This document shows positions 665 through 12,520 of a stretch of DNA of 47,523 nt, one piece after another. The notes beneath the pieces were generated by a model, which was given only the letters and a program-made list of their open reading frames with translations, ran no database searches and was not told the DNA's origin. The translations under genes and the position numbers were made by a program. Positions within the stretch are counted from its first letter, which is position 1, and each line of letters starts with the position of its first letter. The stretch covers positions 1 through 47,523 of the forward strand of contig JAPPAJ010000281.1 in assembly GCA_026705565.1 (NCBI GenBank), written 5' to 3'. This DNA comes from Caldilineaceae bacterium. GTDB lineage: Bacteria; Chloroflexota; Anaerolineae; Caldilineales; Caldilineaceae.

Positions 665-1188
665 AGTTCAATGGTGTCTGGGTGGGTTACTCCGACTGAT
701 GTACAAGATCTTCGGGCGAGCCCTATCCGATCCAGGTAGAGTACGGCGATGTGAAGTTCTGACATCCCCTTGGGCGAGAACCTTATGGAGATCCTGATTT
801 CGTATGCGCAAGGGCCATGCCGCCGCAGGTATGAGAATCGTGCCGGATGGCCTCAGACATCGTTGTACTGTGACAGTATCGTTCTGCTGGGGAGGAGGCG
901 ATCAGTGGGGCCATCGGAACTCCTTGAGTGATGGCTGCGGATTCCTGGAAACTGCGATGATGTCGAGGCTCGGGAAAGCCGCTGTGCTGAACAAGGATCA
1001 TCGAATCAGGTAGTTGTGTGAATGCTTCAGGCACATCGGAAGGCGATCCTGCCGAGACGAGACATTCCGGTGTATGGTCTACTGCGACGGACGCGGCCAG
1101 ATTCGGATGCCGTGTCAAGCTCAAGAGGGTTCCACCCGGTTGAAACAGAGAAGACAACCCCAACCAGGTGTACCGAGGTATCTTCCAG
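665..1188. other. Non-coding gap, nothing recognised
   Basis: About 520 bases between the spermidine-synthase-like gene and the DUF4062 gene. No open frame here looks like a protein on either strand, and I see no strong hairpin with a T-run. The promoter of the DUF4062 gene should lie in its last 200 bases. Confidence 0.4.
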
Positions 1189-2814
1189 ATGGCCACCTTC
1201 AAAGTGTTTCTCAGCAGTGTTCAGAGCGAGTTTGCAAATGAGCGCGCATCTCTCAGGGAGTACTTCCAAACCGACCCGTTGCTCAGTGAGACGTTCGAAA
1301 TCCTCTTGTTCGAGGACATTCCTCCCTCTGAAGTCCCTCCTGACACCGCCTATCTTGAACGGGTGGACCAGGCCGACATTCTCATTGGGCTGTTTGGTTT
1401 GGAATACGGAATCGAGGGCGGCAACGGGATTTCGCCTACAGAGAAGGAGTACAACCGGGCATCGGATACCAATACCCATCGCCTTGTGTTTGTGAAAGAG
1501 GCCGAGGATGAGCACCGTCATCCCAAGATGCGTCAACTCATCGGGAAGGCTCAACAAAGCCTAGTCGTGGGCCAATTCAACACAATTGAGGATTTGAGAT
1601 CGGGCATCCAGACCGCGATGGTCGATTACATGAAGGTCAAGAGGCTGATTCAGACCGGCGGATTCGACGAAGCAATTTGCCAGGATGCCAAACTCAAAGA
1701 CATCAGTGAACAGGCGGTTGTCACGTTTGTAAGGTCGGCGCGGCGGGCGCGACAGCTCCCCCTTGGCGAAGAAACTCCTGTGGAGGATGTTCTAACCCAC
1801 CTTCGCTTGATCAAGGACAATGGTGTCACCAACGCTGCAGTCCAGTTGTTTGGCAAGAATCCCCAAAGGCTTGGCATCCGCTCGGAAGTGCGGTGTGCGC
1901 ATTTCCACGGTACTGAGATTGAGAAACCCATTCCATCGCTCCAAGTGTTTGGAGGGACATTGTTCAGCCAAGTTGACAGTGCCGAGGACTTCGTTCTCAG
2001 CAAAATCAACATGTCCGTTGGCACTCGTGCTGAGAGTGTCCGGGCACCCAGAACCTATGAAATCCCGGTGGAAGTGATCAGGGAGGCCATCGTTAACGCA
2101 GTGGTCCATCGGGATTTCACCAGCACCGGCAACGTACAGGTGATGATCTTTGCCGACAGGCTGGAAATTTGGAATCCGGGAAGGCTCCCGCCTTCGCTGA
2201 CGATCGAGAAACTCAGGGAACCCCATGGCTCGGTGCCTTCCAATCCCCTACTGGCCGAGTCCATGTTCCTGGCCGAATACATTGAACGCATGGGCACCGG
2301 CACTCTGGACATGATCCGGCGGTGCAGGGACGCAGGCCTGCCTGAGCCTGAGTTCAGGGTGGACGACATGTTCAAGGTGACTATCCACCGTGTACTCACA
2401 CGTGAGCGAATTCTCCGTAGTCGCCCTCGGCGAAGGATTCTTGGCCGAATGCCTTCACCCCGGTCTGAGCGGATTCGGGCGCGAGACATACGCCTCTACC
2501 AGCCGAACGTTTCTGCTAGTGGAAGCAATGATGGTCAAAACGCAGCTCCGCAAGTACCCGACAAGTACCCTGCAAGTACCCTGCAAGTCGGAAATCTTAT
2601 TCGCTGCCTGGACGGTGAACGTACACGAGCGGAAATTCTTCAGCGTTTGGGACTGAGAGACCGCTCCAATCTGACCAAGGAATATCTGCGCCCGGCTATT
2701 GCCGAGGGCCTTGTCGAGATGACCATTCCGGACAAACCCCGCAGCAGCAAGCAGCGGTATCGACTGACGTCGAGTGGTCGGGAGCTGCAGGAGCGTCTCA
2801 GGCGAGCAGAATGA
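1189..2814 (+). CDS. DUF4062 / ATP-binding / winged-helix protein
   Basis: A 541-residue protein in three parts. Residues ~1-150 (MATFKVFLSSVQSEF, then DILIGLFGLEYG) are a DUF4062 domain, a TIR-like fold common in bacterial conflict proteins. Residues ~290-400 (REAIVNAVVHRDF, MIFADRLEIWNPG, ERMGTGTLDMIRRC) are the GHKL-like ATP-binding domain of RecG-like/AlbA-type regulators. Residues ~470-541 form a winged helix ending in the usual PDKPRSSKQRYRLT segment. An in-frame GTG lies at 1168, but ATG 1189 begins exactly at the conserved domain start and is preferred. Residues ~401-453 are unlike the family and are a misread relic (see 2402-2549). An 11-bp repeat sits before the winged helix. It may be a regulator or defence protein; the exact role is unknown. 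Confidence 0.8.
   Translation: MATFKVFLSSVQSEFANERASLREYFQTDPLLSETFEILLFEDIPPSEVPPDTAYLERVDQADILIGLFGLEYGIEGGNGISPTEKEYNRASDTNTHRLVFVKEAEDEHRHPKMRQLIGKAQQSLVVGQFNTIEDLRSGIQTAMVDYMKVKRLIQTGGFDEAICQDAKLKDISEQAVVTFVRSARRARQLPLGEETPVEDVLTHLRLIKDNGVTNAAVQLFGKNPQRLGIRSEVRCAHFHGTEIEKPIPSLQVFGGTLFSQVDSAEDFVLSKINMSVGTRAESVRAPRTYEIPVEVIREAIVNAVVHRDFTSTGNVQVMIFADRLEIWNPGRLPPSLTIEKLREPHGSVPSNPLLAESMFLAEYIERMGTGTLDMIRRCRDAGLPEPEFRVDDMFKVTIHRVLTRERILRSRPRRRILGRMPSPRSERIRARDIRLYQPNVSASGSNDGQNAAPQVPDKYPASTLQVGNLIRCLDGERTRAEILQRLGLRDRSNLTKEYLRPAIAEGLVEMTIPDKPRSSKQRYRLTSSGRELQERLRRAE
2402..2549 (+). pseudogene. Out-of-frame relic of an AlbA_2 N-terminus
   Basis: Read one base off the host gene's frame, this stretch encodes VALGEGFLAECLHP then LSGFGRETYA and TFLLVEAMMV. 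The start of the AlbA_2 protein at 11110 reads VALGEGFTTEFKRS, ASGLGREICA, MILLGVADDG. The match sits exactly between the ATP-binding domain and the 11-bp repeat, where the paralogue has only a few residues. The likely origin is a deletion that fused a DUF4062 gene to the repeat and winged helix of a neighbouring AlbA_2 gene. Confidence 0.65.
2551..2590 (+). repeat. 11-bp tandem repeat in coding sequence
   Basis: Three units of CAAGTACCC plus two variable bases (2551-2561, 2562-2572, 2573-2583) followed by a partial fourth (CAAGTCG). The unit length is not a multiple of three, so a gain or loss of one unit shifts the downstream winged helix out of frame. In the present state the gene is in frame throughout. 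Confidence 0.85.
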
Positions 2815-6606: not shown

Positions 6607-7233
6607 GGCGCCGTGGCAGGCCCGGCCTCGGACTTTAGGACTTCGATCAGCTGGCGCGCCTTGGGCGACCGGCGGCCGTACAGACGCGCCGAGAACTCCG
6701 TGATGATCTCGAGCACGTCCCGGGCCAGTTCCTCCTCGAAGAATGGGGGATCGGTCTGATGGATCACCACCACTTCGACCCCCTGCTTCTCGCACAAGGC
6801 AAACACCAACTCGGCCCCGAAGCGCAGCAGCCGATCCCTGTGGGTCAGCACCAGACGTTGCATCTGGCGGCGCAGGATCAGGTCCAGCAAGCGCTGCAGG
6901 CCGGGCTTGTCATACTGCAACCCACTGCCCAGGTCGCGGATGATCTCGGTGCGCCAGCCCTGGGCCGCGCAGTACGCTTCCAGGGCGGCGTGCTGACGGT
7001 CCAGATCGGCCTTTTGGTCAGGGCCGGCGACACGGGCATAGCCGACGGTCGGGGCCGATTCGTTGCTCGCGCCCAGCAACGCGGCGCGGTCATAGTAGCG
7101 CGTCCCCGCCGCCGACTTGCGCGCCGGCAGCAACTCGCCGCTCTCCTCCCACTTCCGCATGGTCTTCACGCCCACGCCCATCAGCGCGGCGGGCCTCGCC
7201 TATGCGTATCAGTCGGTTTTGATGCTTGGCCAT
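6603..7233 (-). pseudogene. tnpA: IS607 TnpA serine recombinase, inactive
   Basis: The N-terminal MerR-like helix-turn-helix is followed by a small serine recombinase domain. From ATG 7233 the frame gives NRLIRIGEA, then one extra base in a GGG run on the plus strand (7191-7193) throws it off. Correcting it gives IGEAAALMGVGVKTMRKWEE, a normal MerR-type helix. An internal start at 7181 would leave an open frame lacking the first helix. The catalytic segment reads YARVAGPDQKADLDRQ, whereas active relatives have YARVS(S/T)xDQ; the nucleophilic serine is alanine. Both changes argue that it cannot catalyse transposition. Confidence 0.87.
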
Positions 7234-7284
7234 AGACCAGTATACTGCCACATAATATCTGATTTCAGAGAACTGTTACTACCC

Positions 7285-8850
7285 CTTGAGACCTACTTTC
7301 AGGGCGACCTGCCCAAGCCCGGTCCGGGTGACAGCTGTACGTTTGATCCCAATGCGGGGCAACGGGTAGACCTGTTCAGGGGTACCGCCATCGAGGACGA
7401 TGTTCGTCGGACCCGGGTACATCCGGTTGTTCGCCTCAACATGGCGATGGCGACCTCGGATACGCCTGCAGGGTTGCAGGCCAGGCTTCTGGAGCACCTG
7501 GAACGGTTGTACACTGATTGGCACCGACGCGGTGTGGAAACCGACATTGAACCAAGGCGGGCCGGGGGATACATCCGGTTTCCACCACCGCCCTCGGGCA
7601 CCGAGGCGGTTTCCGCTGCTAGCCGCCTGGATTCCCTGTTGCATGAACTTGAAAGGCAATTCAAGGCGCCTCCGGTGGTTCTGATTGACGAGTACGATGC
7701 GCCGCTCACGCACTTGTTGGGCAGAAACCTGGACCCGGAACCGTTCATCTCGGTTCTAAGGGAGTTCTTCGGGCGTCTCAAGCACAATGAGGATCGCCTT
7801 CATTTTGTTTTCATCACGGGCATTAGTCGCTTTGCCCACGTGAATCTGTTCTCTGCCTTGAACAACCTCACGGACATTTCATGGGATCCCGAGTATTCGG
7901 ACCTGTGCGGGTTTACCGAAGCGGACCTGCAGGATTACCTTCTGCCCTACCTGGAAGCCGGGGCCGGGAACCTGGGCAAGTCCGTCGAGCAGGTGACGCA
8001 GGAACTGAGGGACCACTACAACGGTTACTGCTTTGGCCATCCCGGTTTCACCGACAACGTCTACAACCCGTATTCGCTCCTGAACTGCCTTGATGACATG
8101 CAGGCTGCCACCGCGGGCGACAAGTGGCGGTGGCAGGGATGGCCCAACTACTGGTCCGAGTCCGGAACCCCGCAGTTCCTGGTGCGGCTGGCCAGGCAGG
8201 GAAACCTCGTTCTGTCCAAGGATCCACCGCCTGTTCATCAACTGACGCGGACCACCTATGACTTGAACAACATTGACTACGGCAGTCTGATGCTGCAAAC
8301 GGGGTACCTCACGCTGTGCTTGGACCAGGGACGTCTGTGTTACGACTACCCAAACAACGAGGTCAGGTTGATCTTTGCATCAAGTTTGTTGGAGAACTTC
8401 GGCCGGTACGCCACGGCGGATGAACTGGAAGGCTTGTACCGGACCTTGGCTGCGGAAGACTACGCGGGGTTCTGCCTTCGGCTCAACACATTCATGGCAG
8501 GCATGCCGGGCGAGAAAATAGTCGGCGAGACCGATTGCCACCTGATTCTGCATGCGCTGTGCCAGTTGATGAGGGTCGAGTTCCAGTCCGAAGTGCACCA
8601 GTTGGGCGGCCGGTCGGACCTGGAAGTGATTTTCCCCGGTCATGTCTGCGTGTTCGAGTTCAAGTACAACCGGTCGCCGGAGGCCGCCTGGCACCAGATC
8701 GAGGCGCGCGACTACGGTCGGCGCCACTTCGGCTCCGCGCGGCGCGTGGTGGCCATCGGCCTCAACTTCATTGGCGGTAGTTCGGAGGAACCACCCCGTG
8801 TCGAATACCAGGCGCGTGAGAGAAACCCATCCGGGGGCAATTCCACCTGA
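7285..8850 (+). pseudogene. AAA-ATPase/PD-(D/E)XK gene, 3' fragment
   Basis: Continuation of the gene begun at 4995. It holds LETYFQGD, the Walker B segment PPVVLIDEYDAPL, the sensor-like FVFITGISRFAHVNLFS, and the family's YNGYCFG and VYNPYSLLNCL motifs. At the C-terminus is a PD-(D/E)XK nuclease-like domain with GGRSDLEVIF and VFEFKYNRSPEAA. These proteins combine an ATPase with a nuclease-like domain; their function is not established. The sequence after the insertion shows no stop or frameshift, so the insertion is either recent or the remaining part is still expressed from a start inside the element's flank. Confidence 0.85.
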
Positions 8851-8891: not shown

Positions 8892-9692
8892 TCAGTTGGG
8901 CACCCTGTACCGTGTGGACAGTTCCGGTTCTGCACCGGGATCCGTCCACACCCGGTGGACCTCCAGCACTCGTTGGCCCAATGTCCGGCAGTGGGTAGCC
9001 AGAGCCTCCCACGAAGGTAGATCGTCGGGGCGACGCAGGCGGAGCCTCTGCTCCCACTGGTTCAGTGCCTTCTTTAGGTCGCGGGGAGCCGGGTGCGACA
9101 GACGCAAGCCCATCTCATGCAGAAAGGACAGGGGTGTCCGTGTTCCGTCGTGCGACCAGGCCGCATGTGGACGCAACCTGTAGCGGTGTTCCAAGGGCAC
9201 CAAGGTTTGAAACAAATAGGGATCGCGCATCCTACTGGCGAGTATGTTGCAGTCGGCGTAGTCGCGGGCCATGTTGCGGAATATGAGCAGGTAACTCTTG
9301 ATTCGCAGCATCTCCGCCATCGTGGGCAGGCGTAGAGTCAAGCCTTGCAAGGAGTAGGTTTGGATGTCCAAGGTATCGCCCTGACTGACGCGGTCATCGT
9401 TCATCAAGGTCGTTTCAATGCCGTCCAAGCGCCCCATGATGGTGTGCCGCTCCCGAACAACTTCGGTGGACCAGCCTGCCAGTGCTTTGAGTCCGTCCAG
9501 TACCTCCTCCCAGTTCGTGTGAAGATCGGGAACCAGGTGATCCGCGTCGCGTGAGGTGCGGTAAGGGGTATAGATCCCAACTGCCGAACCCCCTACCAGA
9601 AACGCCCCCGGAACGGCATCCTGAAGTTTGGATGCCGCGGCCAACACCCTTTGCCAGTGGTCAATTTCAGATGGCGTCAACGGCGCGGGCAT
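8892..9692 (-). CDS. Nucleotidyltransferase, AbiEii-like
   Basis: A 266-residue protein with the nucleotidyltransferase signature GAFLVGGSAVGIYTPYRTSR followed by DADHLVPD, giving the GG...S and D-x-D pattern of the minimal polymerase-beta fold. A later segment (LRLPTMAEMLRIKSYLLIFRN) resembles the helix after the catalytic domain in AbiEii-type toxins, and RDYADCNIL resembles their later conserved region. Known AbiEii toxins transfer nucleotides to tRNA acceptor ends and are paired with an upstream antitoxin. Its start lies 26 bases inside the 3' end of the upstream gene, implying translational coupling and a two-gene unit. It could also be a housekeeping-like NTase of unknown substrate. Confidence 0.7.
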   Translation of the reverse strand: MPAPLTPSEIDHWQRVLAAASKLQDAVPGAFLVGGSAVGIYTPYRTSRDADHLVPDLHTNWEEVLDGLKALAGWSTEVVRERHTIMGRLDGIETTLMNDDRVSQGDTLDIQTYSLQGLTLRLPTMAEMLRIKSYLLIFRNMARDYADCNILASRMRDPYLFQTLVPLEHRYRLRPHAAWSHDGTRTPLSFLHEMGLRLSHPAPRDLKKALNQWEQRLRLRRPDDLPSWEALATHCRTLGQRVLEVHRVWTDPGAEPELSTRYRVPN

Positions 9693-10164
9693 GGTCCAGA
9701 AACGCTTGGTAGTCCTCTGCCGCCCACGGGTGATCCAGCATCAATGGTGCGAAACGAAGTACTTCGTTTCGCACCTCGGCATCATCCTCGATGGCCTGCC
9801 AGAGCCGAGCCTTGTTCTCGCGGTTGCCCTTCTCAATGTAGCGGGAAATCACGCGGGCATTCCGCATGCCGTCCCTTACGGACAGGATCTCGGCCATGTC
9901 GTGCCGGGCCATCTCGAACAGACCGGGCTCATCAATGGTGACGACCAGTTGCTCCAAGTTCTGCAAGGCATCCCGCGAAAAGCTGTGCCTGCGCGCGAAG
10001 GCGCGCAGGTTGGATTCGGTCCAGGCACAGCCACGGGCAGTACGTTCGCCGGCACCGTTCATGCGCCGAGCCACCTCTGCCACAGAGATGTCGGAATACC
10101 AGCCGTGAAACTTGAGCGAGCAGCATGTCTGGCGTACTTGCTCGCTCCCGGTGCGACCGTTCAT
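9667..10164 (-). CDS. Unknown protein paired with NTase (possible antitoxin)
   Basis: A 165-residue protein without a family I recognise. Visible features are SDISVAEVARRMN near residue 24, a mostly helical middle (FARRHSFSRDALQNLEQLVV) and the acidic segment EIL-VRDGMRNARVISRYIEKG. It overlaps the nucleotidyltransferase start by 26 bases and is transcribed first, the usual order of antitoxin then toxin in AbiE-like pairs. It does not look like the standard AbiEi winged-helix antitoxin. The start ATG at 10164 has GGGGAG directly in front; a later methionine at 10062 is an alternative. Confidence 0.55.
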   Translation of the reverse strand: MNGRTGSEQVRQTCCSLKFHGWYSDISVAEVARRMNGAGERTARGCAWTESNLRAFARRHSFSRDALQNLEQLVVTIDEPGLFEMARHDMAEILSVRDGMRNARVISRYIEKGNRENKARLWQAIEDDAEVRNEVLRFAPLMLDHPWAAEDYQAFLDHARAVDAI

Positions 10165-10336
10165 CTCCCCATCTGCATTTCTCGGCGTGAATCACCCTGT
10201 CAGCATACCTGAGACACTCTGATGGAGTCAGGCTGTGCGGGTCGGTGAAATAGCTTACACAGGCCGAAATACGATGCTGAGGGCTTGAGACCAATCCTGA
10301 TAGTCGTTCCAACCCCGAAACCACATATTGACCCTG

Positions 10337-10763
10337 TCACAGAAGTGGTTTCGGAGAAGCAATTCGTTCCAGCTCCGCCAGCTTGCAAGTCGCCCCGAAG
10401 TTGCCTGACAACAACCGGTGTCGGAGGGTTTGGTGCATGGGATCGTTAGGCAACGCGTCAAGTGTCCGTTGTATCTGGGCCGCGTCCCGTTTTGCCGAAA
10501 GCTGTTGGCTAACACAGCTACTTTGCGCCGCTTCCATGCCGCGCGATCGCTCCGATGGCTACTTGGTTTCCGGCCATCTCAAGTGGAACGTGAATACCCA
10601 GCAAGTCACGCGCCCGACAGCATCTCAGGTTCGGATTCCATATTGGACTCAGCATTGATGGGACCGACGGGTTTCGTTCGATGCTGTTCCAACACAGTCC
10701 GATTGACAGATGCAATCTGAAATGTCACCGGACCATCCTCGCCATGTTCAGGTCCACTCATCG
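10337..10763 (-). pseudogene. Degraded small ORF with two frameshifts
   Basis: Three protein-like stretches follow each other in different frames on the minus strand. The first, from ATG 10763, begins MSGPEHGEDGPVTFQIASV and ends EPEMLSGA. The second is RDLLGIHVPLEMAGNQVAIG. The third, from 10537, begins MEAAQSSCVSQQL and runs through LDALPNDPMHQTLRHRLLSG to a stop at 10337. Joined by two frame shifts they would give a protein of about 140 residues. I recognise no family. The reconstruction is an inference from amino-acid plausibility only. Confidence 0.3.
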
Positions 10764-11109
10764 TAGAATGCTGTCGTGGTCGGGTCCTTTGCCCTGGTGC
10801 GTGAGGTAGTCGTCTTCCTGTGTGCATCTTCCGGGTGTCGTGCAGGTTGTTCGCGACGCTTCAGTGGCCGTGAAGGTGTTCTGCGGCCAAACAGCATTCA
10901 TGGACGACCACAACCAAATCACTCCCGGTGGTCGCAGGCGACCTTGGCGACAACGGGCATCAGGGTTGACTGTTCGAACCGTTGTTGAGAGGTTGCCAAT
11001 AGCGCCTTCGCCATTGTCCGGGAACGTGTTGCCGCAAGCGCCTGACACATGGGCTCTTGCGGGTCCGGCACCTTCTTCTCCCACGCCTGATGTTAGGGGA
11101 GGCGGCAGG
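10764..11109. other. Upstream region of the AlbA_2 gene
   Basis: About 350 bases with no gene I can support. The plus-strand frame of the following gene is open back to 10822, but its translation here is arginine/proline-rich and unlike the family. The only clear signal is the ribosome binding site at 11096-11102. Confidence 0.4.
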
Positions 11110-12357
11110 ATGAATCAGAATACTCTCTCCGACCTCGTCGCACTTGGCGAGGGTTTCACGACCGAGTTCAAGCGCTCCGGTGCCAGTGGGCTTGGTCGTG
11201 AGATATGCGCCTTTGCCAACGCCACCGGTGGAATGATCCTGTTGGGTGTGGCCGATGACGGTGAGGTGTTGGGGATTGACAACCACAATCGTTTGAAATC
11301 CGAAGTCCAGTCCATTGCCCGTTCGGCCGAGCCACCCATCGCGGTAGAGATCGAGAGTACCGGGCAGGTGCTCTGTGTACGAGTACCGGTCCAGCAGGGC
11401 AAGCCCTACTCGTTCGGGGGCAAGTTCTTCATCCGCGAGGGCGCGAGCAGCCAGCAGATGTCGCGCGAGCAAATTCGGGAGTTCTTCTATCGGGAAGGCG
11501 TCATCCACTTCGATGAGACCACATGCCGGAAGTTCTCACTGGAGACGGACCTCGACGAGGCGAACTGGAATGTGTTTCGGCATCGGGCCAAGGTTCCGGA
11601 GACGATGGCTCCGGAGATGGCACTACGCAATCTGCACTTGATTGGCGAGGATGGACGGATGACGTATGCCGGTGCCTGGCTGCTGGCGCGGGACATCCGC
11701 AAGTTCAATGTGAGTGCCCATGTTTCCTGCGGCCTCTTCATGGGTACCGACAAGGTGCGCATCCTCGACCGGCGCGACTTCCATGGCGACGTGTACTCGA
11801 TGATTGATGAAACGATGGGGTGGATCCTCTCCAAGATCAATGTCGAATACATCATCCAGGAGTTGCGTCGGGAGGAACGGCCGGAACTACCGGAGCAGGC
11901 GCTTCGCGAGGCAGTCGTAAACGCTTTGGCTCATCGTGACTACCGCTCTACTGCCAATGTGCAGGTCTACCTGTTTGCGGACCGGCTGGAGATTGTCAGC
12001 CCTGGCGGGTTGCCCGCTGGCATCACGGAAGCAGAACTGGGTACTCGGAGCGTGCCGCGCAATCCACTGCTGTTCGGGATGCTGCATCGAATGGACGCGG
12101 TGGAGCACATCGGGTCCGGCATTCGCCGCATCCGTGATCTTTGTCGGGAACACGGTGTGTCGGAGCCAGTGTTTGAGGCAACCGAACATTGGGTGGTTGT
12201 CACCTTCAAGCGGCCGAACGCTGGTGCCACCCACCAAGTCGGCACCAAGTCGGCACCAAGTCGGCACCAAGTCGGCACCAAGTCGGGAACAGTTCGAATT
12301 GCTCCGTTATTGCCTGCACGAGAAGACAATCATCGAATTGATGCAGGTGGCTGGTAG
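11110..12357 (+). CDS. AlbA_2 / ATP-binding regulator, C-terminus out of frame
   Basis: The start ATG 11110 follows GGGGAGG at 11096-11102. Residues ~10-130 form an AlbA_2 (Schlafen-type) domain: LGEGFTTEFKRSG, FANATGGMILLGVADDG, GKFFIREGASSQQMSR. Residues ~260-365 are the GHKL-like ATP-binding domain: LREAVVNALAHRDYRS, LFADRLEIVSPGGLP, EHIGSGIRRIRDLC. At residue ~373 the frame enters the 11-bp repeat and afterwards reads an unrelated tail ending at 12357 (415 residues in all). The normal winged-helix C-terminus is intact but lies one frame away (12285-12520). Proteins of this class are thought to be DNA-binding regulators or conflict-system ATPases. The present product would lack its C-terminal DNA-binding module. 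Confidence 0.82.
   Translation: MNQNTLSDLVALGEGFTTEFKRSGASGLGREICAFANATGGMILLGVADDGEVLGIDNHNRLKSEVQSIARSAEPPIAVEIESTGQVLCVRVPVQQGKPYSFGGKFFIREGASSQQMSREQIREFFYREGVIHFDETTCRKFSLETDLDEANWNVFRHRAKVPETMAPEMALRNLHLIGEDGRMTYAGAWLLARDIRKFNVSAHVSCGLFMGTDKVRILDRRDFHGDVYSMIDETMGWILSKINVEYIIQELRREERPELPEQALREAVVNALAHRDYRSTANVQVYLFADRLEIVSPGGLPAGITEAELGTRSVPRNPLLFGMLHRMDAVEHIGSGIRRIRDLCREHGVSEPVFEATEHWVVVTFKRPNAGATHQVGTKSAPSRHQVGTKSGTVRIAPLLPAREDNHRIDAGGW
12230..12284 (+). repeat. 11-bp tandem repeat, candidate frame switch
   Basis: Four perfect copies of GGCACCAAGTC (12241-12284) preceded by one copy with two mismatches (12230-12240). Because 11 is not a multiple of three, all three frames encode the same cyclic peptide, HQVGTKSAPSR. 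With five units the upstream frame does not enter the winged helix. Adding one unit or removing two makes 11110-12520 a single frame; with one added unit it is 473 residues. Confidence 0.9.
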
Positions 12358-12520
12358 GCGAGACCGCACCAAATTCCGGAACCAGGTTCTCAAGCCCTTG
12401 ATGGAAGCCGGGTGGCTGGAAATGACTATTCCGGACAAACCTCGCAGCAGCAAGCAGAAATACCGGGTTACAGCGAAGGGACAGGAACTGCTGATCGAGG
12501 AAACAGGAAGGGAAGAATGA
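12285..12520 (+). pseudogene. Displaced winged-helix C-terminus
   Basis: Read in the frame ending at 12520, this encodes EQFELLRYCLHEKTIIELM, RDRTKFRNQVLKPLMEAGWL and EMTIPDKPRSSKQKYRVTAK. That is the same winged helix as in the gene at 1189 (EMTIPDKPRSSKQRYRLTSS). It contains no stop codon or other damage, which suggests that the shift is recent or reversible. Confidence 0.8.

What the first reader, a model, noticed from the sequence alone, without database searches (positions are those of the whole stretch)
12230..12284. 11-bp repeat may be an on/off frame switch for a winged-helix domain
Five 11-bp units separate an intact AlbA_2/ATP-binding protein from an intact winged helix that now lies in another frame. 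Any gain of one or loss of two units joins them into one frame. Because 11 and 3 share no factor, the repeat encodes the same cyclic peptide in all frames, so the linker itself is tolerant of change while the downstream domain is switched. Related proteins of this class are known to me to carry repetitive linkers; the switching role is inference.
Basis: partly seen in the sequence, partly recalled or inferred. Interest (0 to 1): 0.75.

Follow-up and report, generated by a model that had tools for sequence, protein, structure and literature searches.

The report
Repeat joint before a swappable DNA-binding domain
Five 11-base repeats in a bacterial gene of a probable phage-defence family push its DNA-binding end out of reading frame; across bacteria the same kind of repeat travels with that end when it is swapped between genes and is nearly always kept in frame, so this looks like an accident at a swapping joint rather than a proven on/off switch.

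Summary
Observation confirmed. Window 12232-12286 holds five perfect CACCAAGTCGG units. Upstream is an intact SLFN_AlbA_2 + HATPase_c_4 frame, downstream an intact winged helix (PF21247) in the +1 frame. Gain of one or loss of two units would fuse them.

Switch reading: only partly supported. The sister-species gene (G002) has about two units and its winged helix is also out of frame, the other way, yet that domain evolves under strong constraint (dN/dS 0.09, CI 0.03-0.19). So the off state is recent or not permanent. But of 36 array genes from other species with an intact N-terminal frame, 34 are in frame (p = 2e-14 against 1/3). Off states sit mostly in broken genes, and two of four genus copies are remnants.

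Unexpected: array and winged helix form one exchangeable module. Array type (CAAGTCGG vs CAAGTACC) matches the recognition-helix motif in 48 of 48 rows, changes 11 times on the N-terminal tree and once on the winged-helix tree.

Best reading: a slippage-prone, in principle reversible frame break at a domain-swapping joint. A selected switch, or an array that is its own winged helix's DNA target, stays open. Unit numbers in reads could not be checked.

The parts
11110..12357 (+). ORF1: SLFN_AlbA_2 (residues 15-118) and HATPase_c_4 (residues 282-366), continues through the array into a 22-residue wrong-frame tail
   Evidence: ORF list; Pfam
12232..12286 (+). array of five perfect 11-bp units CACCAAGTCGG
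   Evidence: TRF; single array of this unit in the genome
12218..12520 (+). winged-helix frame (PF21247, domain about 12314-12472), +1 relative to ORF1
   Evidence: Pfam; AlphaFold model of 12272-12517, pLDDT 88.7, helix 3 starts at RTKFR; fold match 4rgl
1168..2814 (+). second member of the class: DUF4062 + HATPase_c_4 + PF21247, all in one frame
2550..2588 (+). 11-bp array (GCAAGTACCCT, 3.5 units) in the linker of the second member, winged helix in frame
   Evidence: TRF; translation

Best explanation
The gene belongs to the widespread class of Schlafen-type effector plus HATPase plus winged helix. Its linker is a tandem array that belongs, evolutionarily, to the winged helix: array and winged helix are passed between N-terminal parts as one module, and the array lies at the joint (co-inheritance shown by trees; the recombination step is inferred). 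Because the unit is 11 bp, every slippage step changes the downstream frame. In most lineages selection keeps the frame joined (shown). In this genome the array stands at a number that leaves the winged helix out of frame, so the product is the effector-ATPase without its DNA-binding end plus a short wrong-frame tail (inferred from sequence). The off state is recent, and arose separately here and in the sister species (inferred from different unit numbers, opposite wrong frames and low dN/dS). It is reversible in principle, but nothing shows that switching is selected or regulated, and the gene is being lost elsewhere in the genus.
For: 34 of 36 intact array genes are in frame, and off states cluster in broken genes. 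Array type follows the winged helix and not the N-terminal part: 11 changes on the N-terminal tree, as many as shuffled labels, 1 on the winged-helix tree of the same rows; 48 of 48 rows concordant, 9 of 9 independent pairs. Pairs with 80-94% identical N-terminal parts have 48-80% identical winged helices. L188 keeps a CGG-type relic upstream of an ACC array. G001's divergence jumps at the array from dS 0.31 to 1.9. G002 and the window are out of frame in opposite ways with winged-helix dN/dS 0.09. The closer relative G303 (63%) is in frame. G001 and G003 are remnants.
Against: Two recent independent off states in the only two genus members with an intact N-terminal part is more than the family rate (2 of 36) would predict, which favours either active switching or relaxed selection in this genus. 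No read data. Co-inheritance could reflect adjacency alone, without any role of the repeats in recombination. The search pattern fixed CAAGT and TIPDKP, so arrays with other cores were not sampled.
Confidence: 0.5

Rival explanations
1. A true phase-variation (contingency) switch: slippage of the array turns the winged-helix fusion on and off in cells of one population, giving two forms of a probable phage-defence effector.
For: Unit not divisible by three, both domains intact, unit number differs between near relatives, winged helix under purifying selection while out of frame in two genomes in opposite ways. dN/dS limits the time spent unconstrained to roughly a tenth of the divergence (up to a fifth at the upper confidence limit).
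Against: 34 of 36 intact genes, and all 12 with long pure arrays (3.5 units or more), are in frame. Close pairs keep the same unit number (L172/L190, L183/L186, L177/L182). No within-species variation could be looked at.
Confidence: 0.25
2. A pseudogene in an early stage: the frame break is permanent and the gene is on its way out, as in G001 and G003.
For: Two of four genus copies are remnants, the third family member of this genome has an in-frame stop; off states go with broken N-terminal parts; the broken G001 copy also shows low dN/dS (0.09), so low dN/dS does not prove present function.
Against: Both domains have no other lesion here; winged-helix dN/dS 0.09 in both intact copies, against signs of relaxed constraint in the remnant G003 (0.28).
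Confidence: 0.35
3. The array is a DNA target of its own winged helix (for example for self-regulation); type and spacing follow binding, and the frame is a side issue. Not exclusive of the other readings.
For: Array type and recognition-helix motif agree in 48 of 48 rows and switch together in 9 of 9 independent pairs; the motif sits in the first turn of helix 3; 8-base core constant and 3-base spacer variable with no codon-position preference; 11 bp is about one helical turn; 12-bp arrays share the CAAGT core.
Against: Physical linkage alone gives the same concordance. No core copies within 400 bp up- or downstream of the genes. The synonymous-site test is weak (p = 0.02) and the pattern fixed CAAGT.
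Confidence: 0.2
4. Assembly error or a consensus over a mixed strain population put the wrong unit number into the contig.
For: Draft assembly of 413 contigs; number of units in reads unknown.
Against: The array (55 bp) is shorter than ordinary reads; the G002 copy, with about two units, is out of frame too and cannot be a repeat-collapse problem of the same kind.
Confidence: 0.08
5. The winged helix is made as a separate protein or by ribosomal frameshifting, so the two frames are the working arrangement.
For: The domain stays constrained while out of frame in two genomes.
Against: No start codon in the array and the first ATG lies inside the domain; two different wrong frames in the two genomes; strong selection for one joined frame elsewhere.
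Confidence: 0.05

Closest known systems
[quoted passage not shown]
   Same: Same order of parts: SLFN_AlbA_2, HATPase_c_4, winged helix
   Different: Winged helix out of frame here; no BREX core looked for beyond PADLOC on four neighbours (weak pAgo-type matches only); repeat arrays are not mentioned in the passages read
Phase-variable genes with simple sequence repeats (contingency loci; review PMC11868660)
   Same: In-gene tandem array whose unit is not a multiple of three, intact coding on both sides
   Different: Long 11-bp unit with few copies; 34 of 36 relatives in one state; no within-population variation shown
In-gene repeats of Legionella pneumophila (PMC2639597)
   Same: Tandem arrays inside genes with varying copy number
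   Different: All 26 there are divisible by three; here 11 bp
HsdS specificity subunits of type I restriction systems (from general knowledge)
   Same: DNA-recognition parts exchanged between otherwise conserved partners, with repeats in the joining region
   Different: No sequence relationship; exchange here is of a winged helix together with its array
C-terminal domain of Fic protein Dde_2494, PDB 4rgl
   Same: The winged-helix domain itself: sequence profile 8e-20 and fold match
   Different: There it follows a Fic domain, not a Schlafen-ATPase

Membership tests
Schlafen RNase - minimal histidine kinase - wHTH proteins | SLFN_AlbA_2 domain (PF04326) | tested here: met
   8.5e-20, above cut-off
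Schlafen RNase - minimal histidine kinase - wHTH proteins | HATPase_c_4 domain (PF13749) | tested here: met
   3.2e-23, above cut-off
Schlafen RNase - minimal histidine kinase - wHTH proteins | C-terminal winged helix in the same polypeptide | tested here: not met
   Domain present and folded in the model, but in the +1 frame; relatives with the full protein exist
Schlafen RNase - minimal histidine kinase - wHTH proteins | RNase active-site residues | not tested
   -
Schlafen RNase - minimal histidine kinase - wHTH proteins | Linkage to BREX or other defence genes | tested here: inconclusive
   PADLOC on four proteins: weak pAgo-type matches and a marginal DrmMI match; the rest of the window not scanned
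Phase-variable contingency locus | Tandem repeat in a coding region, unit not a multiple of three | tested here: met
Phase-variable contingency locus | Unit number differs between close relatives | tested here: met
   5 vs about 2 in the genus; 7 vs 6 in Capnocytophaga
Phase-variable contingency locus | Both on and off states common among intact relatives | tested here: not met
   34 on, 2 off outside the genus; 2 off in the genus
Phase-variable contingency locus | Variation within one species or sample | not testable with these tools
   One genome per species, no reads; E. coli, for which many genomes are held, gave no match to a CAAGTACCCGA array query
Phase-variable contingency locus | Reversible variation within a clone with a phenotype | not testable with these tools
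   -

The most novel reading that the evidence does not exclude
A phase-variable, domain-swapping effector of phage defence in which the 11-bp array does three jobs at once: frame switch, joint for exchange of DNA-binding domains, and DNA target matched to the recognition helix of the domain it travels with.
Probability: 0.1. Interest if true: 0.85.

Novelty: new variant of a known kind. Interest (0 to 1): 0.5.

Why it matters
If the module reading is right, a short frame-breaking repeat marks the place where a large class of probable phage-defence regulators exchange their DNA-binding ends, as type I restriction enzymes exchange specificity parts. The one-to-one match of repeat type and recognition helix makes a direct binding test possible. 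It would also help to explain why a repeat that threatens the reading frame persists in many phyla.

Tried and rejected
Close relatives in viral contigs by protein: none. CAAGT x2 plus winged-helix anchor in viral contigs: none. CAAGT arrays in viral contigs: more than 120, mixed coding and non-coding, not followed into families. Strain-level variation in E. coli and plasmids: family members exist, but the one array query against E. coli found nothing. Operator copies near the genes: none. Q-codon bias in QV (74 CAA to 5 CAG) is not used as evidence because the search pattern forces CAAGT. Peptide-level versus DNA-level constraint: weak signal only. G611's arrays are intergenic and unrelated. 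No paper on frame-breaking repeats in this protein class was found.

Full report
Observation. The array is real and perfect: 12232-12286, five units of CACCAAGTCGG, the only such array in the genome. The upstream frame 11110-12357 carries SLFN_AlbA_2 and HATPase_c_4; the winged helix (PF21247) lies in the +1 frame. All frames of the array give the same cyclic peptide without stops. Gain of one or loss of two units would fuse the frames.

Surroundings. A second member of the class lies in the same window at 1168-2814, with DUF4062 in place of AlbA_2, its own 11-bp array (2550-2588, CAAGTACCCTG type) and the winged helix in frame. A third member elsewhere in the genome has a 12-bp array (TDQV repeats) with the same CAAGT core, and an in-frame stop upstream. 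In a 400-genome sample of the phylum only two genomes hold four CAAGT at 11-bp spacing: this one (in these two genes) and one whose arrays are intergenic and unrelated.

Sister species. G002 (86% identical N-terminal part) has about two units, and its winged helix is out of frame the other way. G001 has a degenerate array, has lost the N-terminal half through a deletion, and is also out of frame. G003 is a remnant. The 63% relative G303 is in frame. Between the window and G002 the winged helix has dN/dS 0.09 (bootstrap 0.03-0.19), close to the N-terminal part (0.13; 0.09-0.19); the same DNA read in shifted frames gives 1.4-1.5. So most of the divergence passed while the domain was in use. This does not prove present function, because the broken G001 copy also shows 0.09 over its remaining ATPase part.

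Family survey. A scan of one genome for each of 84,980 species with a pattern that does not constrain the frame (three CAAGT at 11-bp spacing, then the TIPDKP codons) found 49 loci with 50 arrays in many phyla and one archaeon. The winged helix is in frame with the longest frame entering the array in 41 and out in 9. With an upstream frame of at least 300 codons the count is 34 to 2, against one third expected without selection (p = 1.7e-14); with shorter, non-edge upstream frames it is 4 to 7. In Capnocytophaga two species have 7 units in frame, a third has 6 units out of frame together with a deleted N-terminal part, and paralogues with 12-bp arrays keep frame while their unit number varies. 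Frame is therefore under selection, and an off state usually goes with decay.

Module. Pairs of genes with 80-94% identical N-terminal parts have winged helices of only 48-80% identity, and several carry arrays of different type. Arrays fall into CAAGTCGG-like and CAAGTACC-like types, and the type matches the motif at the start of the recognition helix (R-T/S/A-K/R-F/L-R or not) in 48 of 48 rows. The model of the window's winged helix (pLDDT 88.7) puts R32-T-K-F-R36 in the first turn of helix 3, the usual recognition helix (nearest solved fold 4rgl, then MarR-type proteins). On the N-terminal tree array type changes 11 times in 35 rows, about as often as shuffled labels; on the winged-helix tree of the same rows it changes once. 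Nine of nine independent pairs switch both together (sign test p = 0.004). L188 keeps a CGG-type peptide relic upstream of its ACC array, the footprint of a swap inside the linker. In G002 the whole part after the ATPase of the second gene is replaced, and in G001 divergence from the window jumps at the array from dS 0.31 to 1.9. That array plus winged helix move as one unit is shown; that recombination between repeats does it is inference.

Possible DNA-level role. Changes inside arrays sit mainly in the three spacer bases rather than in the core and show no clear preference for third codon positions. Restricted to synonymous changes the difference is p = 0.02, which is suggestive only. No extra core copies lie near the genes. 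Binding of the array by its own winged helix is therefore a hypothesis.

Known relatives. [quoted passage not shown] This is the same order of parts; of the features tested for membership only the fusion of the winged helix is not met, and defence linkage was inconclusive. In Legionella all 26 in-gene repeats were divisible by three (PMC2639597), which shows how unusual an 11-bp unit is.

Verdict. The switch is possible but not shown, and the family survey lowers it. The more general result is a repeat-built joint that travels with the DNA-binding domain. Limits: no reads, one genome per species, CAAGT and TIPDKP fixed by the search pattern, trees made with a quick search, and the host of the window not named. 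The confidences given to the rival readings overlap, because the DNA-target reading does not exclude the others.

Noticed in passing
window 1168-2814: Second family member with DUF4062 (TIR-like by general knowledge) in place of AlbA_2 on the same HATPase-winged helix chassis, with its own 11-bp array, in frame.
   Followed up: partly
L155 (G002:C127) 3-1688: Counterpart of the second gene in the sister species: everything after the ATPase domain, array and winged helix included, is replaced by an unrelated C-terminus.
   Followed up: partly
L156 (G001:C1) near 7812: Deletion of about 2.85 kb relative to the window (9042-11895) joins the 7.3-9.0 kb block to the middle of the ATPase domain of this gene.
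   Followed up: partly
L160 (G000:C125, about 7150-8700, minus strand): Third family member of the genome with a 12-bp CAAGT array (TDQV repeats) and a stop inside the ATPase part.
   Followed up: partly
L243, L248, L249, L252, L253, L254 (G611): One genome of the same phylum carries many 11-bp arrays of CAAGTCGTGAT, apparently intergenic and followed by inverted copies; function unknown.
   Followed up: partly
L035-L154 (viral contigs): At least 120 viral contigs carry four CAAGT at 11-bp spacing, each array uniform inside but different from the others, many in non-coding DNA.
   Followed up: partly
L210 and L189, within 200 bp upstream of the gene starts: Extra arrays of CAAGT at mixed 12- and 11-bp spacing just upstream of the gene; perhaps the end of a neighbouring family member.
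   Followed up: no
L264 (Capnocytophaga, G696): Linker with 12-bp units followed by 11-bp units, which suggests that 11-bp arrays can arise from in-frame 12-bp arrays by loss of one base.
   Followed up: partly
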